Shown: one piece after another, positions 1-37,047 of the stretch
How the letters are laid out: each line of letters opens with the position of its first letter
Position numbering within the stretch: position 1 is the stretch's first letter
Assembly (NCBI RefSeq): GCF_028435365.1
Contig: NZ_JAGTJJ010000088.1
Coordinates: 1 to 37,047 of the forward strand
Reading direction: 5' to 3'
Origin: Polyangium jinanense
Lineage (GTDB): Bacteria > Myxococcota > Polyangia > Polyangiales > Polyangiaceae
Length of the DNA stretch: 37,047 nucleotides
Program-made: the position numbers and the translations under genes
Notes under the pieces: model-generated
What the model was told of the DNA's origin: nothing
What the model saw: only the letters and a program-made list of their open reading frames with translations
Databases searched by the model: none

Positions 1-118
1 ACCGCGCAGTTCTTCCAACCCGAGTCCAGGGCTTGCCCTGGTTCGGGTCGAGGGGCGAACAGCCCCCGCGGGGTCCGGGGCAGCGCCCCGGCGCGGCGTC
101 CCCAAGAAGAAACCAATG
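1..118 (-). repeat. gene-terminal four-hairpin repeat, copy 1 (subtype B, truncated by the window edge)
   Basis: Read on the minus strand, this follows the isoamylase stop by about 36 bases. It shows a hairpin CCGGGGC/GCCCCGG, a CCCC/GGGG stem, a hairpin CCAGGGC-AA-GCCCTGG, and then the start of a terminal palindrome (GAAGAACTGCGC) that runs off the window edge. It closely matches the copy at 34852-34988, including the flanking AAGAAG..CCAATG. Position and orientation suggest a 3'-end element, possibly a terminator; the function is inferred. Confidence 0.8.
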
Positions 119-2892: not shown

Positions 2893-4368
2893 TCAGGGAT
2901 GCGGCTTCGAGGGCGCGTCGCGCTCGCCCGGAGCCGCGTCGCGTCTGCGGATTCCCAAAGCCTTCAGCTTGTGGACCAAGGTTCGGAGCGGCATGCGCAA
3001 CCTGCGCGCGGCCTCCGTTTGATTGCCGCCCGCTTGCCGGAGCGCCTCCTGGATCAGCTCGCTCTCGTAGCGCTGCACGCGCTCGCGCAGGTCCGCCTGA
3101 TCGTCGAGGGGAGCGGCGGCGCGGCGCGCAGGGCTCGGGGAGGCAGGCCGAGCGCCGTCACGTACGCGCTCCGGCAGGTCGCCCAGGGTGATCGTATTGC
3201 CCTCGGCGACGATCACCGCGCGCTCGATCGCATTGCGGAGCTCGCGAACGTTGCCCGGGAACGAATAACGATGCAGCGCCGAGAGCACCGCGGGGTCGAT
3301 GCCCCGGATCTCCCTCTCGTGCTCCCGCGCAGCCTGCCTCGTGAAACGCAGCGCGAGCGGCTCGATCTCCTCGGGGCGCTCGCGCAGCGGTGGCAGGGTC
3401 AAGACCATGGTGTTGAGGCGGTAGAGCAGATCGAGGCGGAACGTCCCCTCGTCGCACATGACCTCGAGATCGCGGTGGGTCGCGGCAATGAGGCGAATGT
3501 CGACCGTCGTCTCCCTGCTCGAGCCGACCCGGGTCACGCGCTTGGTCTCGAGGACACGCAGGAGCGCGGCCTGCGCCGAGGCGGGTAGCTCCCCGAGCTC
3601 GTCGAGAAAAACCGTGCCGCCGTGCGCTGCCTCGAATACGCCTTTCTGCTGCTGCACCGCGCCCGTGAATGAACCCCGCTCGTGCCCGAAGAGGGTGCTC
3701 TCGACGAGCTCGCGCGGCAGGGCGCCGCAATTGACGGAGACCATCGGCCCCGAGCGTCGATCGCTGCGGTCGTGGAGGGCGCGGGCGAGGATCTCCTTGC
3801 CGGTGCCGGTCTCACCCCGCAGCAAAACCGAAATCGAAGAGCGCCGCAGCTTGTCGATGGCTTCGAAGAGGCGGCGCATCGCGGGGCTCGCGATGATGGG
3901 CCCGTCGTCCTCCCCACCGTCTGCGGCGCGCGAATGCGGCGAGGCTCGACCTCTCTCGCGGCGCGCGACGGCATCGTCGGGCGCGAGCGCGTACACGGAG
4001 ACCACGACACGACCGAGGAGCAGCTGATCGCCGGGGCCGACCTCGCCGCGCGTGACGCACTCGCCCCGGATGCGAACCCCATTCGTCGAATCCAGGTCCT
4101 CGACGCGCACGACACCACCCTGCAGCGTCAAACGCGCGTGTCGTCGTGACAGGCTCGCGTCCGGGATCCGGACATGCGACGGCTCGAGGCGCCCGACGAT
4201 AATGGGGCGCCCGGGGCTCAACGGGACGAATTGCGTTCGCCCGTCGTGATGGACGACCAGCGCGACACCGGCTCCCTTTCGATCCACCTGCTCCACGGCC
4301 TCGACGGCGCCTTCGGGTAGGCGCACGGTGATGGCGGCGGCGACCGGATCGATGCTCGGGATATTCAT
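2893..4368 (-). CDS. FHA-domain sigma54-dependent transcriptional activator (enhancer-binding protein)
   Basis: A 491-residue activator of sigma54 RNA polymerase. An N-terminal FHA domain (about 45-128) has the GRP..VGR, SRRH and STNG signature residues for binding phosphothreonine. The AAA+ domain (about 150-385) has Walker A GETGTGKE (185-192), loop 1 GSFTGA (232-237, Ser in place of the usual Ala) and Walker B FLDE (254-257). A Fis-type helix-turn-helix lies at about 448-472 (GGNQTEAARRLRM). FHA-type activators are expanded in myxobacteria and are typically coupled to Ser/Thr kinases; the kinase at 7723-9918 is a nearby but unproven partner. I chose the ATG at 4368 because GAGGAG lies just before it and the FHA domain starts soon after. 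An in-frame ATG at 4521 would add 51 low-complexity residues with no ribosome site. Confidence 0.92.
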   Translation of the reverse strand: MNIPSIDPVAAAITVRLPEGAVEAVEQVDRKGAGVALVVHHDGRTQFVPLSPGRPIIVGRLEPSHVRIPDASLSRRHARLTLQGGVVRVEDLDSTNGVRIRGECVTRGEVGPGDQLLLGRVVVSVYALAPDDAVARRERGRASPHSRAADGGEDDGPIIASPAMRRLFEAIDKLRRSSISVLLRGETGTGKEILARALHDRSDRRSGPMVSVNCGALPRELVESTLFGHERGSFTGAVQQQKGVFEAAHGGTVFLDELGELPASAQAALLRVLETKRVTRVGSSRETTVDIRLIAATHRDLEVMCDEGTFRLDLLYRLNTMVLTLPPLRERPEEIEPLALRFTRQAAREHEREIRGIDPAVLSALHRYSFPGNVRELRNAIERAVIVAEGNTITLGDLPERVRDGARPASPSPARRAAAPLDDQADLRERVQRYESELIQEALRQAGGNQTEAARRLRMPLRTLVHKLKALGIRRRDAAPGERDAPSKPHP

Positions 4369-4605
4369 GGCTCCTCGGGACGAGCGAGACGCCCCGGGGA
4401 CCGGGCGGTCATCCAGAGCATTGCGTGTCGCCATATCACCGGCGGCATCCGGCGCAAGGAAAACCAGCTCGCCCGCGGCCCTCGGTCGTGGCGTGCCGTA
4501 CGGCGCGCCCACGGTGCCCATGGTTTCGTTTTATTCGAGGATTGCCCGCGGAGGTCGAGATGCGGGAGGGGGAAACGCAGCCGGTCGAGGACGACGAGGG
4601 CAGCA

Positions 4606-4639: not shown

Positions 4640-7102
4640 TCAGGGCACGTTCGCGGCGCCGGGCGTCACGGTGGAGGTGGCGGCCCAGTCGGCGGCGGCG
4701 TCATCGGTGTCCGCGCCGCTCGGGATGCGGCAAAGCGAGCGCTCGGTCCGGCCGCTGTCCGCGGTGGTGAAGGGGTTGCCCTCGACGAGACTCACCTGGC
4801 CGACATTCGGGATATTCGCGGCCGTGATCCGGCCCTCGTACGAGAGCGCGTCGAGCATGGCGCCGTCCTTGATGAGCGCCACGCCGTCCGGCCCACCGTT
4901 CTGGATCTGGTTTTCGGAGCCCTGGAAGTTGATCTTCAGCGCGCCCTCCGGGACCAAAACCGATGGGCTACCCACCACCAGGAATTGCCCCGCCCCGAGC
5001 GTTCCGGCCTGGCCGAGGTCGACGGTCGCGTAGACCTCACCGTATTGCCCTTCCACGAAGACCAGCGAATGGCCAGCGAGGTTCACGGGCGACGCGCTAC
5101 CATTCCAGATCTCCACGAACTCCGCCTGGTCCGCCCCCGCGTTGTCGTAATCGATCTCGTTGATGACGAGGGCGGCGCCGTCGCCGTACGTGCCGGTCAA
5201 CGTCACGCCCGAGTAAGCGCTGAAGCCGCGGACCATCACCCAGTACGTGCCGGGCTTGATGTCGGTGATGGTGCAAGTCTCGTTGCTATCCCCGCCGAAC
5301 GGCCGGCACTCCCACTTCGAGCCCCGCGGCGGCTCGCCGAAGAGAACGTAAAGGTCGGCGTCGCCTTCTCCGCCCTCGATGGTGAACGTGAGGCTCGTCG
5401 CCCCCTCGGGCACCTCCAGCGTGAAATACTGCTTGCCGTTCGGGTCGCCGCTGAGGTTCGCGACGGGCACCCCATTCTCGAGCGCAGTTGCATTCGGTAG
5501 CGGTATCGGGACGCCCACGCCCACGGCCTCCCAGGCGTTCGAGACCGATTCGAGCTCCGCGTCCGGGAGCCCGAGGATCCGCGCCGCCTGCTCCGTCGCA
5601 GCCTTGGCCTGGTCGAACGTGGTGGTCGACGTCATGATCGCCATGTTGGCCAGGTAGAAGACGCGCGCCGCCTTCTCGACGCCGATGCCCCGCACCTCGA
5701 CCGAGGTCTTGCCTCGCGGATGCGTGCCGCCCTGGGCGAGGAGATAAAAGGCGAGGTTCGCGATGCCCGAGCTGAAATGGACGTCGATGCCATCCTCGTA
5801 ATCCGGGAAGTAATCGAGCGATATCCCGTCGAGCGCCGGATCGGCCAAGTAACGGAGCGCATCGCCCTCGGTCGCGGGCGTCCACACGTCCTCGCCAATC
5901 TTCCAGGTATTCTCATCGGCGACGCGGCCCGCCCGGAACCACTCGCACACGCTCCCGAAGATGTCGCTCATGGCCTCGTTCAGCCCCCCCGACTCGCCGA
6001 CGTATTCCAGGTTCGACGTGCTCTGGGTGACGGCGTGGGTGAGCTCGTGGGCGGTGATGTCCATCGATTCGGCGAGGTTCGAGGCCGTCACGCCGTCGCC
6101 GTCGCCGTACACCATCTGGGTGCCGGTCCAGAAGGCGTTGACGAAGTTTTCGCCGAAGTGGACGGAGCTCACCAGCGTGGCCCCCAAGCCGTCCAGGGAG
6201 TCGCGGCCGAAGAGGGTCGCATAACAATCGTACGTGACGCCGATGTGCTCGTAGTTGGTATTGACGGTGCTATCCTCGACCGGTTCTTCCCCCTCGCTGC
6301 GAGCGAGCGCTCCGGGCAGCTCCATGCCGTGCGCGAGATCGTGGATCTCCCGGTTCTTCGCCGAGTGGATATGCGGGATGCGGCGGACCACCTTGCCGCT
6401 CTCGGCGTCCACGAGCACAGTGTCGCGAATGGGCGTGCCGTCTGCGCGCATACCCGTCACCTCGACCTGATAGACCAGCGAGAGGGCTTCGGGCGTCCGC
6501 ACATAAGCAAGCTTCGCCTCGCCGGCGGCCAAGGCCTCGGGGAGCGACGGTACGGCGCCGTTGGCCACGGAGATCGCCGTGCTCGCGTCGATCCGCGGCT
6601 CGCGCGGCGCCGGCAGGTCGTCGCGGGCCTGGCCGTTGGCCGACGTGAGAATGCCCTTTTTCACGTGGACGACCAGCTCGCCACCGATGACGGGCAGGCC
6701 ATGCTTCATCTGCTGGAAACGCAGATGCTGGTTGCCGAACGAATCGTGGTGGACCGTCTTCTGGACGAGATCCGCGGAGTTTGCGCGGAACGCAGGGGCC
6801 ATGACAGCGAGGGCCGAGCGCACGTCGATTTTTCCGTCGTCCTCCCGGACCTCGGCAGCCCCGAGGTTGCCCTGGAGAGACGTCGGCACGCCGGCTTTGT
6901 CCACGTCGACGACGCGGACCGAGGGGAGCGCGTCGAGGTGCTTCTGGATATCGAGACCGGATCGCCCGACGAGACCGGATTGCCCGTCGAGACCGGATTG
7001 CCCTTCGAGCTCCGCGCCCGTGTCCCCCGGGCCCTGGCATGCAGCTGCGAGAACCGTGGCAGAAGCAAAACCAAGTACACCCACAATCCCAATCTTCTTC
7101 AT
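4640..7102 (-). CDS. thermolysin-like (M4) metalloprotease with PPC and lamin-tail domains, secreted
   Basis: An 820-residue zinc endopeptidase precursor. The signal peptide ends in LAAAC (Cys22, possible lipoprotein). Next come three copies of a (G)xSGL hexapeptide, an FTP/PepSY propeptide (about 60-230) and the M4 catalytic domain. The zinc ligands are His352 and His356 in HELTH with catalytic Glu353, and Glu376 in GGLNEAMSD. The proton-donor histidine is His442 in DVHFSSG. The spacings (20 and 90 residues) match thermolysin. A PPC domain (about 545-650) and a lamin-tail domain (about 660-815) follow and probably aid surface or substrate binding. AGGA precedes the ATG. The autoinhibitory propeptide implies activation after export. 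It is probably a predation or nutrient protease (inference). It is divergently arranged with the kinase-peroxidase gene. Confidence 0.95.
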   Translation of the reverse strand: MKKIGIVGVLGFASATVLAAACQGPGDTGAELEGQSGLDGQSGLVGRSGLDIQKHLDALPSVRVVDVDKAGVPTSLQGNLGAAEVREDDGKIDVRSALAVMAPAFRANSADLVQKTVHHDSFGNQHLRFQQMKHGLPVIGGELVVHVKKGILTSANGQARDDLPAPREPRIDASTAISVANGAVPSLPEALAAGEAKLAYVRTPEALSLVYQVEVTGMRADGTPIRDTVLVDAESGKVVRRIPHIHSAKNREIHDLAHGMELPGALARSEGEEPVEDSTVNTNYEHIGVTYDCYATLFGRDSLDGLGATLVSSVHFGENFVNAFWTGTQMVYGDGDGVTASNLAESMDITAHELTHAVTQSTSNLEYVGESGGLNEAMSDIFGSVCEWFRAGRVADENTWKIGEDVWTPATEGDALRYLADPALDGISLDYFPDYEDGIDVHFSSGIANLAFYLLAQGGTHPRGKTSVEVRGIGVEKAARVFYLANMAIMTSTTTFDQAKAATEQAARILGLPDAELESVSNAWEAVGVGVPIPLPNATALENGVPVANLSGDPNGKQYFTLEVPEGATSLTFTIEGGEGDADLYVLFGEPPRGSKWECRPFGGDSNETCTITDIKPGTYWVMVRGFSAYSGVTLTGTYGDGAALVINEIDYDNAGADQAEFVEIWNGSASPVNLAGHSLVFVEGQYGEVYATVDLGQAGTLGAGQFLVVGSPSVLVPEGALKINFQGSENQIQNGGPDGVALIKDGAMLDALSYEGRITAANIPNVGQVSLVEGNPFTTADSGRTERSLCRIPSGADTDDAAADWAATSTVTPGAANVP
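6952..7005. repeat. three in-frame 18-base tandem repeats
   Basis: Units at 6952-6969, 6970-6987 and 6988-7005 share CGAGACCGGAT(C/T)GCCC. They encode the SGL hexapeptide repeats just after the protease signal peptide. As 18 bases is a multiple of three, copy-number change would keep the frame. Confidence 0.9.
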
Positions 7103-7722: not shown

Positions 7723-9918
7723 ATGGACATCCCGCATGTCGACGTCCCGCGACCGGGTGACATCGTGGCCGGCAAGTACCGGATCGAGGGTACGCTCGGG
7801 CAGGGCGGAATGGGCGTCGTGCTCGCTGCCGAGCACCTGGCGCTCAGGCAGCCGGTCGCGCTGAAGTTATTGCTCCCCCGCCACGGGGGCACTGTCGAGG
7901 CTGAGGAGCGCTTTCTGCGCGAAGCCCGAGCGACCGCGTCGCTGCAGAACCAGCACGTGGTGCGTATCCTCGACGCCGGCCTGCTACAGACGGGCGTGCC
8001 GTATCTGGCGATGGAGCGGCTGCGGGGGCTCGACCTCCAGGAGGTGCTCCACCTGCGCGGGCCCTTCTCGAGCATCGCGGCCGTCGACCGCTTGCTGGAG
8101 GCGTGCGAGGGGATCGCCGAAGCGCACGCGCGCGGAATCATCCACCGCGATTTGAAGCCGGCCAATCTGTTCCTGGCCACGGGAGCCGACGGGGTGGAAA
8201 TCGTCAAGGTGCTCGATTTTGGTTTGTCGAAGTGGCTCACGCCCGAAGGCCCGACAGAGAGCAGCTTGACCGACTCGAATGCGATCGTCGGATCGGTCCC
8301 GTACCTCGCGCCCGAGCTCTTGCGAGGCCTGAAGTGGGCTGACACGCGCGCCGACATCTGGGCCCTCGGCGTGATCCTTTATGAGTTCCTCACGGGGCAA
8401 CGCCCCTTCGAGGCCTGCACCACACCACAATGCCTGCTCAAGATCCTCGAGCATCCGCCGGTCCCCATGGATGCCTGGGGGGTCGTCGTGCCGGCGGGCA
8501 TCGATCGCGTGGTCCTGCACTGCCTGGAGAAAGACCCCGGAGACCGCCCGCAGACGGTCGCCGAGCTCGCCCAGGCGCTCGAGCCATTCGGCTCCTCCGC
8601 GGCGCGCGCGTCCCTCGATCGCATCCGCCGCTATCAGGCGAACGAGGGTCCCAGCCGCCCCCAGAGCAGTCTCGTCGCCGAGCCACCTCCTTCGGAGCGC
8701 GTGGCGTCCCTCCACCGGGAGGAGACCCCGAAGCCCTGGGTGTCGTCGGACGCGCCTCCGCGCCCGCGTCCAGGAAGCGGCCGGTTCGGCCCCACGACGA
8801 CCCCCCTACACGAATTGAACGCCCAGACACCCAGCCGTGCGCTCGCCCCGCCGGAGCGTCCGAGAAGCTTCTCCTGGGGCCTGGCCCTCGCCCTCGGAAT
8901 GGCCGTGGCCGCTGGGCTCGCATTTGGGCTCTCGCGCATGACGCGGCGCATGGACGTCGTGTCGGCCGAGATCATACCGGAGCGGCTGACGAGCTTCGCG
9001 CCTCTGCCGGTCGAGTCGACGATACCGCCCGATCCGACGTCCGCGGCGCAGATTCGGCTGGGTCGGGTCCTTTTTCACGATCCGCGCCTGTCCAAGAACC
9101 AGGATATCTCGTGCGCCTCGTGCCACCCCCTCGAGGCCTGGGGCGTCGACCGCAGAAAGCTATCGCGAGGGAGCGACAATCGAGAGCCCCCCCGGAACAC
9201 GCTGAGCGTCTACAACGTCGACGGCTATTTCGCCCTGCTCTGGGACGGTCGGCAGGACAACCTCGTGGATCAGGCCAAGGAGGTGCTGCGATCCCCGCGG
9301 GCCATGGCGGCCACGCCCGAGCGCGTCGAGGCGACGCTCCGCTCCTCCAAAGGTTATACGCAGGCGTTCGCGCAGGCGTTCCCCGGTCCGACGCAGCCCG
9401 TGACGTTCGACAATGTCGCGCGCGCGCTCGCGGCGTTCCAGGCCACGCTGTACACGCGGAGCCGCTGGGATCGATTCCTCGAGGGAGACAAGGCCGCGCT
9501 GAGCGACGAGGAGAAGGCGGGCTTCAACCGGTTCGTCGAGATTGGCTGCATCACCTGCCATTTCGGACCCAACGTGGGCGCGACGATGTACCAGAAGGCT
9601 GGGCTCGTGAAGCCCTGGCCGGACACGAAGGATCGGGGCCGCTACGAAATCACGCGGCGAGACGTCGACTGGATGGTTTTCCGGGTACCCAGCCTGCGCA
9701 ACGTCGCCCGGACGGGGCCGTACTTCCATGATGGCTCGGTCTCCTCCCTGGAGGAGGCCGTGAAGATGATGGGGAGACATCAGCTCGGGCAGGAGCTGTC
9801 CGACAGGGACGCGCGCTTGATCATGCGGTGGATGGAGAGCCTGACGGGTGAGATCCCCCGCGACGCCATCGAGCTCGACGAGGCGTCACGCGTGCTCTTG
9901 AAGGGAAACGTGCCGTGA
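7723..9918 (+). CDS. membrane Ser/Thr protein kinase fused to a di-heme cytochrome c peroxidase/MauG-like domain
   Basis: 731 residues in one open frame. The N-terminal half is a complete Pkn2-type kinase: Gly-rich loop GQGGMGVV (26-33), Lys48 in VALK, HRDLKPAN (catalytic Asp143), DFG at 165-167 and LAPELL. A Pro/Ser/Arg-rich linker follows (about 305-380), then one membrane helix (about 382-405). The C-terminal half is a di-heme peroxidase domain: LGRVLFHDPRLS, first heme site CASCH (464-468), WDGR, second heme site CITCH (609-613), FRVPSLRNV, YFHDGS and MGRHQLG. In CCP/MauG proteins a NPxEM-like segment carries the distal catalytic Glu; here it reads SPRAM, with Ala527 in that place. The topology would put the kinase in the cytosol and the hemes in the periplasm, where c-type heme is attached. 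Myxobacterial kinases often carry C-terminal sensor domains, so a redox or peroxide receptor kinase is the natural inference. The ATG at 7723 starts right before the kinase fold; an upstream in-frame start at 7597 adds 42 low-complexity residues. Confidence 0.93.
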   Translation: MDIPHVDVPRPGDIVAGKYRIEGTLGQGGMGVVLAAEHLALRQPVALKLLLPRHGGTVEAEERFLREARATASLQNQHVVRILDAGLLQTGVPYLAMERLRGLDLQEVLHLRGPFSSIAAVDRLLEACEGIAEAHARGIIHRDLKPANLFLATGADGVEIVKVLDFGLSKWLTPEGPTESSLTDSNAIVGSVPYLAPELLRGLKWADTRADIWALGVILYEFLTGQRPFEACTTPQCLLKILEHPPVPMDAWGVVVPAGIDRVVLHCLEKDPGDRPQTVAELAQALEPFGSSAARASLDRIRRYQANEGPSRPQSSLVAEPPPSERVASLHREETPKPWVSSDAPPRPRPGSGRFGPTTTPLHELNAQTPSRALAPPERPRSFSWGLALALGMAVAAGLAFGLSRMTRRMDVVSAEIIPERLTSFAPLPVESTIPPDPTSAAQIRLGRVLFHDPRLSKNQDISCASCHPLEAWGVDRRKLSRGSDNREPPRNTLSVYNVDGYFALLWDGRQDNLVDQAKEVLRSPRAMAATPERVEATLRSSKGYTQAFAQAFPGPTQPVTFDNVARALAAFQATLYTRSRWDRFLEGDKAALSDEEKAGFNRFVEIGCITCHFGPNVGATMYQKAGLVKPWPDTKDRGRYEITRRDVDWMVFRVPSLRNVARTGPYFHDGSVSSLEEAVKMMGRHQLGQELSDRDARLIMRWMESLTGEIPRDAIELDEASRVLLKGNVP

Positions 9919-9957: not shown

Positions 9958-10428
9958 TCAGAGGCCGAGCTCGGTCAGCCCGGGCCAATCGGCGGGCCTC
10001 GGGCCATCCGATTCCCACAGGAATTTGCGCTCGCTCGCGGCGATGTGCACGTCATTGATGCTGGCCTCTCGGCGGCGCATCAGGCCGTCGTCGTCGAACT
10101 CCCATTGTTCGTTGCCATAGGAGCGGAACCACTGGCCGTCGGCGTCGTGCCATTCGTACTGGAAGCGCACCGCGATGCGGTTGCCGTCGAACGCCCAGAG
10201 TTCCTTGATCAGCTTGTAATCGAGCTCCTTGGCCCACTTGCGCGTCAAGAACTCGATGATCGCCGCGCGTCCCTGGAAAAACTCCGCGCGGTTTCGCCAG
10301 ACGCTGTCCTCGGTGTAGGCGAGCGCCACACGCTGGGGATCGCGGGAGTTCCAGGCGTCCTCGGCCAGGCGGGCCTTGCGGATGGCGGTCTCGCGGGTGA
10401 ACGGAGGAAGCGGGGGCCGGGGGGACAT
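9958..10428 (-). CDS. DUF1348 / SnoaL-like (NTF2-fold) protein
   Basis: 156 residues with the DUF1348 pattern: a helical start ([28 protein letters not shown]), then F(F/Q)GR..I.EFL..KW..ELDY, the [18 protein letters not shown] core and the [19 protein letters not shown] stretch. The family folds like nuclear transport factor 2 and has no agreed reaction. It has no signal peptide, so it is probably cytosolic. AAGGAG seven bases before the ATG supports the start. It is convergent with the kinase-peroxidase gene, with 39 bases between stops. Confidence 0.88.
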
Positions 10429-10527
10429 GGCAGGGCTCCTTGGTCGGTACCGAGATAGGTACAGCGTTCAGGGAGCGCGCGTCAACGGGCGACGCCCCCT
10501 CCCCGCGGCGCCGCCGCGCCCTTCGCT

Positions 10528-11292
10528 TCACCAGCTCGCCAGGAGGGAGCCGTCGTCGGAGGCGACCAGCGTCGTCGTCTCCGCCGGGTCGAGCCGCGCA
10601 TAAATCACGTATTGCCGCTCCCAGTAACTTCCGTCCGGGTGCGGCGTCGTCTCGCTGATGTCGCTGCGGGCGATGAAGCGCTGGGCGTTCATGGCCGTGT
10701 TCGTGAGCTTCGGCAGGATCCGATACTGCGCCGTCTGGCCGTTCGCCGCGCAATGATAGTACAAGGAGACGGGCGCCGTCGTCTTGCCGGACGCCGTCTT
10801 GAACATCCCGTTGAAGGGCATCCAGCATTGCCCGCTGTACCCGGCCGGGGTGACGTAGGCCGTTCCGTGAACGACCGGGTTATTGGCATTGGTCCCGGTC
10901 CCGTATTTGAGCTGCGTCCAGCCGTTCACGTACATGCCGATGCTGAAATCGTATTCGCTGCCCAGCGCATCGGTCTGCTCGTACACCGGAACCGTGGCGC
11001 CCTGCCAAACTCCGCAGCCGCCGGCGCCGCACGCTCGCTCCCGCATGCCCAGCATGAAGTTGCCGAACGTGGCAGGCTTCGAGGCGAACTTGGTGCGAAT
11101 CTGCGTCGCAGTGAGCGCGCCGACCTTGATGTCGCTCTCGAACAGCTCCTCGGTCCCCGTGGTGAGGGCCGACGCGCTCGTCGAAATCGCCTCGTCGAGT
11201 GCGTCTTCCATCTCGCCCTCCGCGGCCGGCGAGGCCACGCAAGCGATGGGAGCCAGGCAAAAGAGCATACACAGACCAATCCAGCGAGACAT
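10528..11292 (-). CDS. exported protein of unknown function
   Basis: 254 residues that I do not recognise. A signal peptide (MSRWIGLCMLFCLAPIAC) may end at a lipid-modified Cys18, though Pro at -3 is atypical. The acidic segment EGEMEDALDEAIS follows. The mature part has Cys pairs (RACGAGGCGVW; QCWMPFNG; YYHCAANG) that could form disulfides and many aromatic residues, suggesting a beta-rich secreted domain. GGAGG lies just before the ATG at 11292; a longer frame reading to 11571 lacks coding character. It follows the STAND regulator by about 98 bases on the same strand. Confidence 0.8.
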   Translation of the reverse strand: MSRWIGLCMLFCLAPIACVASPAAEGEMEDALDEAISTSASALTTGTEELFESDIKVGALTATQIRTKFASKPATFGNFMLGMRERACGAGGCGVWQGATVPVYEQTDALGSEYDFSIGMYVNGWTQLKYGTGTNANNPVVHGTAYVTPAGYSGQCWMPFNGMFKTASGKTTAPVSLYYHCAANGQTAQYRILPKLTNTAMNAQRFIARSDISETTPHPDGSYWERQYVIYARLDPAETTTLVASDDGSLLASW

Positions 11293-17445: not shown

Positions 17446-18354
17446 TCAAGAGCCGTTCGTGAAGCTGACGCGCAAGATCCGACCTATCTCCAGGGCGATC
17501 CATATGGCCCCATCGGGTCCGAGCACCAGGCCATGCGGCTCGGAGGACGGGGTTGGCAGATCGTATTCGTGGATCACGCCCTCCGAAGTGATGTGACCCA
17601 GCCGGTTCGCGCCCCACTCCGTGAACCAGCATGCACCGTCTGGATCGGCCACGATTGCGTGGGGCCGCGCAGTACGATCCGGGAGAGGAAACTCGCGCGT
17701 CGTGCCATCCGGGGTGATCCTCCCGATCTGGCCTGCGCCAATCTCGACGAACCAGAGGGCGCCGTCACGGCCGAGGGTGATACCCACGGGCGCGGCGAAA
17801 GGCGTGGGCAGAGGATGGATCGCGACCTCGCCCTCCGGCGTGACACGGCCGATGGCATTGGCCTGATTGAGGGTGAACCAGAGGGCGCCGTCGGGGCCAG
17901 CGGTCATGGCCGAAGGGAACGCGCCTTGGATGGGCAGCGCGAACTCCGTGATCGCGCCGTCCGTCGTGATGCGGCCGATCTGATCGGCGTTCATCTCTGT
18001 GAACCACAAGGCGCCATCCGGACCCGAGGCAATGCCGAAGGGACCCGCGTTCGCGGTGGGCAGAGGAAAAGACGCCATCTCGCCCGCGGTCGTGATGCGC
18101 CCGATCTGGTGATCGCCGGATCGGGTGAACCAGAGCGCCCCGTCGGGTCCCGGCGTGAGGATGCAGGGCCGAGATCCCGAGGCATCGAGCGGAAAGACGT
18201 CGAGCTGGCCTTCCAGGGTCATGCGCGCGACCGCCCCGCCGTGGACCAGCGTGAACCAAAGGGCTCCGTCGGGGCCCGTGGTGATGCCGTAAGGGCCAGC
18301 GTCCAGGCGCGCGAGGGGGATTTCCCGAAAGACGGGGCGTCCAATTCCTGCCAT
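17446..18354 (-). CDS. vgb: streptogramin B (virginiamycin B) lyase
   Basis: 302 residues forming a seven-bladed propeller of repeats like P.GI..GPDGALWFTE..N.IGRIT..G.I.EFPLP. Vgb linearises type B streptogramins by an elimination reaction at the ester bond, without hydrolysis. The staphylococcal catalytic and metal residues His228, Glu268, His270 and Glu284 correspond here to His232 (RPHAI), Glu272 and His274 (SEPHGL) and Glu289 (ALEIGRI). The 40- and 2-residue spacings are identical and the last differs by one. Blade details such as ALWFVEIGA and WFTEWGANRLG also match. There is no signal peptide. Many related propellers in environmental bacteria lack these residues, so this one is a good candidate for true lyase activity. 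No clear ribosome site precedes the ATG. Confidence 0.88.
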   Translation of the reverse strand: MAGIGRPVFREIPLARLDAGPYGITTGPDGALWFTLVHGGAVARMTLEGQLDVFPLDASGSRPCILTPGPDGALWFTRSGDHQIGRITTAGEMASFPLPTANAGPFGIASGPDGALWFTEMNADQIGRITTDGAITEFALPIQGAFPSAMTAGPDGALWFTLNQANAIGRVTPEGEVAIHPLPTPFAAPVGITLGRDGALWFVEIGAGQIGRITPDGTTREFPLPDRTARPHAIVADPDGACWFTEWGANRLGHITSEGVIHEYDLPTPSSEPHGLVLGPDGAIWIALEIGRILRVSFTNGS

Positions 18355-34647: not shown

Positions 34648-34656
34648 TGGCGCTGA

Positions 34657-34763
34657 GCTGGGGCGTTGCCCCAGGCCCCACCAGGGGCTATCCGCCCCTG
34701 GACCCGGACCAGCGCAAGCGCTGGACCCGGGGTCGATGAACTGCGCGATGCGCAGTTCATCGA
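34657..34763 (+). repeat. gene-terminal four-hairpin repeat, copy 2 (subtype A)
   Basis: Starts 10 bases after the MpaB-like stop. In order: CTGGGGC-GTT-GCCCCAG; then a segment that can fold either as GCCCC/GGGGC or as CCAGGGGC/GCCCCTGG; CCAGCGC-AA-GCGCTGG; and a terminal palindrome with 14-base arms (TCGATGAACTGCGC) around GAT at 34733-34763. 103 bases match the copy at 36945-37047 with two differences. Confidence 0.92.
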
Positions 34764-34851
34764 ACAGGCCAGGTCAAGACCGGCGGGCGACCCTGCCAAC
34801 CAAGACAGCCACGCTGCCCTTTCAACGGGCAACGCGGTCCAACCGGCCCGT

Positions 34852-34988
34852 TGGAAGAACTGCGCGGAGCGCAGTTCTTCCATCACGAGTCCAGGGCTTG
34901 CCCTGGTCCGGGTCGAGGGGCGGATAGCCCCCGCGGGGTCCGGGGCAGCGCCCCGGCGCGGCGGCCCCAGCCCAAGAAGAGGCCAATG
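34852..34988 (-). repeat. gene-terminal four-hairpin repeat, copy 3 (subtype B)
   Basis: Read on the minus strand it begins 8 bases after the stop of the lipoprotein gene and ends in a palindrome with 14-base arms (TGGAAGAACTGCGC) around a 3-base centre at 34852-34882. It faces copy 2 across about 90 bases, giving a large imperfect inverted repeat between two convergent genes. Confidence 0.92.
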
Positions 34989-36929: not shown

Positions 36930-36944
36930 CCGGGGAGGCGCTGC

Positions 36945-37047
36945 GCTGGGGCGTTGCCCCAGGCCCCACCAGGGGCTGTCCGCCCCTGGACCCGGACCAG
37001 CGCAAGCGCTGGACTCGGGGTCGATGAACTGCGCGATGCGCAGTTCA
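36945..37047 (+). repeat. gene-terminal four-hairpin repeat, copy 4 (subtype A), at the window end
   Basis: 103 bases differ from copy 2 at only two positions. It starts 15 bases after the stop of the preceding gene and ends in the palindrome TGAACTGCGC-GAT-GCGCAGTTCA at the last base of the window, so its full palindrome may continue outside. Confidence 0.92.

What the first reader, a model, noticed from the sequence alone, without database searches (positions are those of the whole stretch)
7723..9918. Receptor-like Ser/Thr kinase fused to a di-heme cytochrome c peroxidase domain
One uninterrupted frame encodes a complete Ser/Thr kinase (Lys48, Asp143, Asp165), a membrane helix and a CCP/MauG-like domain with two CxxCH heme sites (464-468, 609-613). 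The c-type hemes must be attached in the periplasm and the kinase needs cytosolic ATP, so the topology makes sense only as a transmembrane device. I know of no described receptor kinase that uses a di-heme peroxidase fold as its outer domain. It could read periplasmic peroxide or electron-carrier redox state and report it by phosphorylation, for instance to FHA proteins such as the activator at 2893-4368 (inference).
Basis: partly seen in the sequence, partly recalled or inferred. Interest (0 to 1): 0.87.

Follow-up and report, generated by a model that had tools for sequence, protein, structure and literature searches.

The report
Receptor kinase with pseudo-peroxidase heme sensor
A soil myxobacterium encodes a membrane-crossing protein kinase whose outer half is a two-heme peroxidase domain that has lost a residue needed for peroxidase chemistry but is otherwise strongly conserved, so it most likely works as a heme sensor that tells the cell about conditions outside the inner membrane.

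Summary
In detail: window 7723-9918 (+) is one 731-aa frame with a complete Hanks-type kinase, a membrane helix and a di-heme cytochrome c peroxidase (bCCP) fold. It is not a chance fusion: 106 of the 120 listed relatives carry both domains; the named ones are Polyangium, Sorangium and Polyangiaceae. The acid-base Glu essential in bCCPs and MauG is Ala527, the pocket Pro is Val521, the pocket Phe is Leu506. Both CxxCH sites, E-heme Met, Trp, Gln and Ca2+ ligands are kept, under strong purifying selection (dN/dS 0.05-0.07). CCP domains of 25 sampled fusions form one clade, but their kinases do not (AU p 1.6e-6), and one member has CHAT plus a STAND NTPase instead of a kinase: one outer module, exchanged inner outputs. 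Best reading: a heme-based (redox or small-ligand) receptor kinase derived from a peroxidase. The proposed FHA partner is absent from the syntenic locus of the nearest relative examined. The searches made found no paper on this architecture. No activity is shown; a newly conserved Glu520 leaves a relocated peroxidase possible.

The parts
7723..9918 (+). whole gene, 731 aa receptor kinase with di-heme CCP outer domain
   Evidence: orthologue P0002 (96% identical over the CCP part) in Polyangium sp. 15x6
7777..8556 (+). Ser/Thr kinase domain (residues 19-278), predicted cytosolic; K48, E67, HRD 141-143, N148, DFG 165-167, PE 197-198
   Evidence: Pfam E 6.8e-41; residue conservation; PknB-like fold TM 0.92
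8269..8271 (+). activation-loop Thr183 (T in 100 of 102 fusions), likely autophosphorylation site
   Evidence: equivalence to a PknB activation-loop Thr is recalled
8620..8874 (+). Pro/Ser/Arg-rich disordered juxtamembrane linker (about residues 300-384)
   Evidence: pLDDT under 50 at 308-386; sequence
8878..8934 (+). transmembrane helix (residues 386-404)
   Evidence: best hydrophobic 19-mer, mean Kyte-Doolittle 1.91; helix 386-407 in the model; family statistics
8971..9858 (+). periplasmic di-heme bCCP domain (about residues 417-712)
9112..9126 (+). P-heme attachment site CASCH 464-468
   Evidence: conserved 121 of 121
9172..9174 (+). Ser484 at the position of the P-heme distal His ligand of classical bCCPs
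   Evidence: alignment to solved bCCPs; column counts
9238..9240 (+). Leu506 in place of the pocket Phe
   Evidence: L in 42 of 44 window-clade rows, F in 159 of 167 non-fused rows
9241..9243 (+). Trp507, inter-heme electron-transfer Trp, kept
   Evidence: 111 of 111 fused and 119 of 119 other rows
9271..9273 (+). Gln517, distal pocket Gln, kept
   Evidence: 107 of 111 fused, 119 of 119 other rows
9280..9285 (+). Glu520-Val521: new conserved Glu, and Val replacing the pocket Pro
   Evidence: E520 in 43 of 44 and V521 in 39 of 44 window-clade rows; P in 159 of 167 non-fused rows
9301..9303 (+). Ala527 in place of the acid-base catalytic Glu of bCCPs and MauG
   Evidence: Glu role in PMC10094543 and PMC6405878 passages
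9547..9561 (+). E-heme attachment site CITCH 609-613
   Evidence: conserved 121 of 121
9769..9771 (+). Met683, E-heme distal Met ligand, kept
   Evidence: 111 of 111 fused and 118 of 119 other rows

Best explanation
A single-pass receptor Ser/Thr kinase. The N-terminal Hanks-type kinase is in the cytosol and a di-heme domain of bCCP descent stands in the periplasm. In the window's lineage that domain is no longer a normal peroxidase: the distal pocket of the P heme has lost its acid-base Glu, its Pro, its Phe and the distal-loop His, leaving a probably five-coordinate, more hydrophobic heme next to an intact His/Met E heme, Trp bridge and Ca2+ site. It most likely senses through heme state: the E heme equilibrates with the periplasmic electron-carrier pool and/or the open P heme binds a small ligand such as NO. 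The resulting change in conformation or pairing of the outer domain, which in classical bCCPs couples reduction and Ca2+ to loop movement and dimer packing, sets the pairing of the kinase domains and hence trans-autophosphorylation. Shown by sequence: domains, topology statistics, pocket changes, conservation, and, for 25 sampled fusions, one CCP clade with kinases that are not one clade. Inferred: heme loading, ligand, coupling by dimerization, substrates.
For: Domains and folds. Topology: helix in 100 of 102, more K+R on the kinase side in 86 of 102 fusions. Catalytic kinase residues and activation-loop Thr conserved. Catalytic Glu: non-Glu in 48 of 125 kinase-fused rows against 6 of 172 other rows, two of those six being truncated fusions. 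Of 14 positions fixed in the window clade but rare elsewhere, 10 lie at 480-524, the distal loop and pocket stretch. Constraint: dN/dS 0.051 (442-712) to 0.069 (416-715) in the CCP part against 0.213 in the kinase, window versus L111. The outer module of 25 sampled fusions is one clade against 26 chosen non-fused CCPs (support 100/100), whereas the kinases of the same 25 proteins are not one clade (AU p 1.56e-6). P0097, in that CCP clade, carries CHAT plus nSTAND1 instead of a kinase. Sorangium sp. So ce375 holds both types, P0007 without and P0081 with the Glu. In print: Glu and Gln variants inactive, and reduction with Ca2+ opens the pocket and changes the dimer interface (PMC10094543 passages); E277Q of BthA inactive (PMC6405878 passages); dimerization takes part in activation of receptor STKs (PMC6213207 passages).
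Against: No heme, ligand, kinase or dimer data. Glu520 is newly conserved (43 of 44) and could be a relocated acid; no coordinates were available to see where it points. P0027 and P0028 sit inside the window clade and keep Glu527. The independent-pairs test of Glu loss against kinase fusion was not significant (median p 1): the loss is mostly one event with a few smaller ones, and it also occurs in non-fused rows (L042; P0146, P0148, P0159). In the larger quick tree (297 rows) only 117 of 130 rows counted as fused fall in one clade of 119, with support 36, and 13 lie outside. The distal His is missing in many non-fused CCPs too (H in only 82 of 119). Most fusions outside the window clade keep Glu and could be active peroxidases. 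No conserved partner gene was found.
Confidence: 0.65

Rival explanations
1. The outer domain is still a peroxidase with a rebuilt active site: Glu520 replaces the lost Glu527 as acid-base catalyst, so the protein reports H2O2 (or clears it) while signalling.
For: E520 conserved in 43 of 44 window-clade rows; Gln517, Trp507 and Met683 kept; P0027 and P0028 carry E520-V521-E527, a possible intermediate; most fusions outside the window clade keep the Glu.
Against: The Glu and Pro described as conserved across bCCPs, MauG and BthA (PMC6405878 passage) are both gone; point variants at the Glu are inactive in print; residue 520 lies 7 residues earlier and its direction is unknown.
Confidence: 0.2
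2. The CCP part is a membrane-tethered electron-transfer or peroxidase enzyme and the kinase controls it or uses the helix only as an anchor; there is no outside-in signal.
For: A close non-fused relative, L133 from a genome of the same phylum, reads as a lipoprotein CCP, so the module probably came from an enzyme; the linker is long and disordered.
Against: In the sampled fusions kinase partners were exchanged while the outer module was kept, and a CHAT-STAND output replaces the kinase once, the pattern of a receptor; pocket loss in the window clade argues against enzyme use.
Confidence: 0.1
3. Degenerate or artefactual fusion: the outer domain is a decaying leftover, or two genes joined by an assembly error.
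For: Loss of catalytic residues taken alone could mean decay.
Against: Same single frame in L111 and kinase plus CCP in one frame in at least 9 of 183 order genomes (in one, G167, only part of the kinase is in frame); dN/dS 0.05-0.07 in the CCP part; both heme sites 121 of 121.
Confidence: 0.02

Closest known systems
Receptor Hanks-type Ser/Thr kinases (PknB, PknD, PrkC, StkP)
   Same: N-terminal cytosolic kinase with PknB-like fold, disordered juxtamembrane linker, one helix, C-terminal outer sensor
   Different: The outer domain is a di-heme bCCP fold instead of PASTA repeats or a beta-propeller; no PASTA was found by Pfam, and the NCBIfam PASTA-kinase model matches only its kinase part, below cut-off
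Classical bacterial di-heme cytochrome c peroxidases (MacA, P. aeruginosa and Paracoccus CCP)
   Different: Window lineage lacks the catalytic Glu, pocket Pro and Phe and the distal His; fused to a kinase
MauG and MbnH-type di-heme enzymes
   Different: Less similar in sequence; E-heme ligand position is Met as in bCCPs, not Tyr; the Glu that MauG needs is absent
c-type heme sensor domains (sCache_heme/DUF3365, Geobacter GSU0582 and GSU0935)
   Same: Covalent c-heme in an outer sensor domain fused through the membrane to a signalling domain; fused ones have properties of NO sensors (PMC12889525 abstract)
   Different: [quoted passage not shown] a find for 'serine' in that paper gave no occurrence

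Membership tests
Hanks-type Ser/Thr kinase | VAIK Lys, alphaC Glu, HRD, DFG, APE-type motif | tested here: met
   K48, E67, H141-D143, D165-G167, P197-E198; in the 102 rows chosen for DFG: K 99, E 100, HRD 102
Hanks-type Ser/Thr kinase | phosphotransfer activity | not testable with these tools
   needs protein
Receptor Ser/Thr kinase | kinase inside, single helix, sensor outside | tested here: met
   sequence prediction only: helix in 100 of 102, more K+R on the kinase side in 86 of 102
Receptor Ser/Thr kinase | activation by ligand-driven dimerization | not testable with these tools
   inference from PknB and PknD (PMC6213207 passages)
PASTA kinase | PASTA repeats outside | tested here: not met
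   no PASTA match in Pfam at E up to 1
bCCP | di-heme CCP fold with two CxxCH | tested here: met
bCCP | His/Met E heme, bridging Trp, pocket Gln, Ca2+ ligands Asn/Thr/Pro | tested here: met
   residues present: M683, W507, Q517; N492, T664, P666; roles from PMC10094543 passages
bCCP (working peroxidase) | distal acid-base Glu | tested here: not met
   Ala527
bCCP (working peroxidase) | distal pocket Pro | tested here: not met
   Val521
bCCP (reductively activated type) | distal-loop His ligand of the P heme | tested here: not met
   Ser484 by alignment; His also absent from 37 of 119 non-fused rows
bCCP | peroxidase turnover | not testable with these tools
   needs protein
MauG | Tyr as E-heme distal ligand | tested here: not met
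   Met683 aligns with the bCCP Met ligand (that this Met is the ligand is recalled, His/Met ligation is in PMC10094543); Tyr ligation of MauG and BthA from PMC6405878 passages
sCache_heme sensors | Cache fold with one CxxCH | tested here: not met
   [not shown]

The most novel reading that the evidence does not exclude
A class of heme-based receptor Ser/Thr kinases in which a periplasmic di-heme peroxidase was recruited once or a few times as an outer sensor, had its kinase exchanged (once for a CHAT-STAND effector), and in the Polyangium/Sorangium branch became a 'pseudo-peroxidase' that senses redox state or a gas such as NO through a rebuilt five-coordinate heme instead of turning over peroxide.
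Probability: 0.55. Interest if true: 0.86.

Novelty: new variant of a known kind. Interest (0 to 1): 0.75.

Why it matters
Sorangium cellulosum So ce56 held 317 eukaryotic-like kinases, by far the most in any prokaryote genome when counted in 2010 (PMC2887360 passage); from general knowledge, few myxobacterial kinases have a known signal. Here the outer domain has known chemistry, so the signal is directly testable with standard heme biochemistry. If right, it would be a case of an enzyme turned into a receptor by loss of its catalytic acid, would link periplasmic redox or NO to Ser/Thr phosphorylation in multicellular predators, and would offer a natural pair (Glu-bearing and Glu-less paralogues in one Sorangium strain) for separating sensing from catalysis.

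Tried and rejected
Own-genome search: no genome is held for the window. Viral contigs: no relative.

Operon or partner gene: ORFs of L111-L120 and the first 20 kb of the window were clustered. Window and L111 share their neighbours; L113, L118 and L119 (Sorangium-type loci with the window-type fusion) share clusters among themselves, and Pfam on L113 gives lipoxygenase, carbonic anhydrase and M36 peptidase there; L112, L114, L115 and L116 form another set, with a LolA-like gene beside the fusion (Pfam tested on L112 only). I saw no cluster of real neighbours common to the window and the Sorangium sets; the clusters that span them are the fusion itself and shadow frames on it. A dedicated FHA substrate was therefore left as unsupported.

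Promoter/terminator scan: 0 promoter-like and 1 terminator-like site (inside the gene), not above shuffles.

Other N-terminal fusions: eight long CCP frames showed only CCP and cytochrome c-type domains at E up to 0.001; high-GC frames stay open far upstream, so open-frame length alone was not used as evidence. Seven further phylum loci had no kinase in the CCP frame.

Simple claim 'Glu loss follows kinase fusion': independent-pairs test not significant; kept only as a description.

Literature: searches found no paper on a kinase-CCP fusion (listings only; one search was weak, 6,764 papers by two common terms, 15 listed). Searches gave background. The library holds open-licence papers only, so absence is not proof.

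Full report
WHAT IS THERE. Window 7723-9918 (+) is one open frame of 731 codons plus stop. Residues 19-278 match Pfam Pkinase (E 6.8e-41) and 442-590 match CCP_MauG (E 4.5e-47). Sequence comparison with solved structures puts the outer part closest to bacterial cytochrome c peroxidases (2c1u, E 2e-68) ahead of a MauG-like di-heme enzyme (6e1c, 4.5e-31) and MauG (3svw, 2.8e-21). Between the domains lie a long disordered linker (pLDDT under 50 at 308-386) and a hydrophobic helix at about 386-404.

IT IS A CONSERVED ARCHITECTURE. Searching with the outer part found 599 relatives (E up to 1e-10), of which 120 were listed; by the precomputed Pfam column 106 of the 120 carry both Pkinase and CCP_MauG, and 102 of the 121 sequences aligned (query included) carry a kinase DFG. 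Several rows without a kinase label are truncated fusions: of 15 rows whose N-terminal parts I tested, P0019, P0029, P0037, P0048, P0056 and P0094 match the C-terminal part of a kinase profile built from the fusions; P0049, P0059 and seven others had no match. In the order of the MAG G001, 66 of 183 genomes had a close CCP match at E up to 1e-90; kinase and CCP in one frame were verified in 10 loci of 9 genomes (in G167 only part of the kinase is in frame). That is a lower bound: at most 13 candidates per genome were scored and not every match was fetched. In a phylum sample, 75 of 377 genomes matched at E up to 1e-105, at most 6 candidates each scored; of these, G152 and G001 are verified fusions, and seven other long or strong matches had no kinase in the CCP frame.

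TOPOLOGY. In the 102 fusions a helix of mean hydropathy 1.4 or more lies between kinase and first CxxCH in 100. The 20 residues before it carry on average 3.8 K+R against 1.8 after it, more before than after in 86 of 102, with 9 ties. An earlier, too narrow distance filter had passed only 53 of 121. This fits kinase in, CCP out, which c-heme attachment also needs (established biology, not tested here).

THE KINASE LOOKS ACTIVE. In the 102 rows (chosen for DFG) HRD and the catalytic-loop Asn are invariant, Lys48 is kept in 99, Glu67 in 100, activation-loop Thr183 in 100. The model matches PknB (TM 0.92 by target length).

THE PEROXIDASE POCKET IS REBUILT. Aligned to solved bCCPs, the window protein keeps both heme sites, bridging Trp507, pocket Gln517, E-heme Met683 and the positions of the Ca2+ ligands (N492, T664, P666; roles from PMC10094543 passages). 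It has Ala527 where bCCPs have the acid-base Glu, Val521 for the pocket Pro, Leu506 for the pocket Phe and Ser484 where classical bCCPs have the distal-loop His. In print, variants of the Glu and the Gln are inactive (PMC10094543 passage), BthA E277Q is inactive, and Glu, Gln and Pro are conserved across bCCPs, MauG and BthA (PMC6405878 passages). P. aeruginosa numbering (His71, Gln104, Glu114), used in my notes, is recalled.

A first set of 230 CCP rows (strong profile matches, identical rows merged) gave Glu in 116 of 119 rows without and 66 of 111 rows with a kinase match. With proteins added (120 listed of 185; 297 rows in all), Glu is missing in 48 of 125 fused and 6 of 172 other rows; P0029 and P0037, two of the six, are truncated fusions. 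Parsimony places one large loss (49 rows, the window clade), a return or retention in P0027/P0028, small losses in P0127 and P0132/P0133 (fused), and in L042 and P0146/P0148/P0159 (not fused). The independent-pairs test between fusion and Glu state was not significant, so fusion is not claimed to cause loss. The distal His is not diagnostic: 82 of 119 non-fused rows have it.

Comparing 44 window-clade rows (chosen for lacking Glu; P0027, P0028, P0108, P0127, P0132 and P0133 left out) with 75 Glu-bearing fusions and 167 non-fused rows, 14 positions are fixed in the clade but rare elsewhere. Ten lie in the distal loop (480, 482, 487-490) and pocket stretch (L506 42 of 44, E520 43 of 44, V521 39 of 44, S524 43 of 44); the others are 579, 646, 650 and 699. 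This looks like remodelling, not decay: between window and L111 the CCP part has dN/dS 0.051 (442-712) to 0.069 (416-715), the kinase 0.213, linker 0.256, helix region 0.877 (31 codons only).

ONE OUTER MODULE, SEVERAL INNER ONES. In a careful tree the CCP domains of 25 chosen fusions, with P0094 and P0097, form one side of a branch against 26 chosen non-fused CCPs, support 100/100 (53 rows). The kinase domains of the same 25 proteins, with 21 kinases without CCP, do not: forcing them together costs 131 log units, AU p 1.56e-6 (LG+G4, long branches flagged). The 21 were drawn from kinases most similar to the window's, so sampling is uneven. In the larger quick tree of 297 rows, 117 of the 130 rows counted as fused fall in one clade of 119 with weak support (36), whose other two rows are P0097 and the truncated fusion P0094; 13 fused rows lie elsewhere, so a second or third recruitment is possible. 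The window group's kinases form one group (94/93) beside kinases without CCP. P0097 has CHAT, nSTAND1 and CCP with a strongly hydrophobic segment at 749. The simplest reading is that the outer module kept its job while its inner output was exchanged. Sorangium sp. So ce375 holds both pocket types, P0007 without and P0081 with Glu.

SURROUNDINGS. The gene is flanked by an M4 metallopeptidase gene (4640-7102, -) and a DUF1348 gene (9958-10428, -). The FHA sigma-54 activator (2893-4521, -) is absent from the syntenic place in L111, where 5 bases separate its flanks. In the Sorangium-type locus L113 the window-type fusion sits beside lipoxygenase, carbonic anhydrase and M36 peptidase genes instead. 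There is no sign of an operon partner.

HOW IT MOST LIKELY WORKS (inference). Reduction of the E heme with Ca2+ opens the P-heme loop and changes the dimer interface in classical bCCPs (PMC10094543 passages); dimerization takes part in switching on receptor Ser/Thr kinases (PMC6213207 passages). A bCCP domain on a kinase therefore already has a redox-to-pairing lever. In the window lineage the loss of the acid and of the distal His should leave an open, more hydrophobic heme suited to binding a ligand rather than splitting peroxide; NO is a candidate by analogy with c-heme Cache sensors (PMC12889525 abstract). The main rival is that Glu520 has taken over catalysis.

NOVELTY. Receptor kinases, bCCPs and c-heme sensors are each known. 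A bCCP as the outer domain of a Ser/Thr kinase was not found in the searches made (open-licence papers only). I file it as a new variant of receptor Ser/Thr kinases; I do not file the outer domain as a working bCCP, because the Glu test was not met.

Noticed in passing
P0097 (1106 aa, Myxococcales MAG; no window coordinates): CHAT protease-like domain plus nSTAND1 NTPase, a hydrophobic segment at 749 and a di-heme CCP domain that groups with the kinase-fusion CCPs: a possible heme-triggered CHAT-STAND effector.
   Followed up: partly
window 2893-4521 (-): FHA sigma-54 activator gene present in the window but absent at the syntenic place in L111 (Polyangium sp. 15x6), 5 bases between the flanks.
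   Followed up: partly
window 3-109, 34649-34968, 36933-37047: Related repeat copies; members match two places in L111 (within 2189-2471 and 10468-10793), one just downstream of its kinase-CCP gene, where the window match has no such stretch.
   Followed up: no
window 17446-18354 (-): Strong match to the virginiamycin B lyase family (PF24684, E 1.1e-144).
   Followed up: no
window 4640-7102 (-): M4 thermolysin-type peptidase with PPC and lamin-tail domains.
   Followed up: no
P0137, P0139: Long CCP proteins that also carry PF12849 and PF16694, one from a Chloroflexota MAG: other CCP fusions.
   Followed up: no
L133:743-2191 (-): Non-fused CCP that reads as a lipoprotein, about 61% identical to the CCP part of two fusions (P0047 and P0052 by their lengths): a possible model of the ancestral enzyme.
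   Followed up: partly
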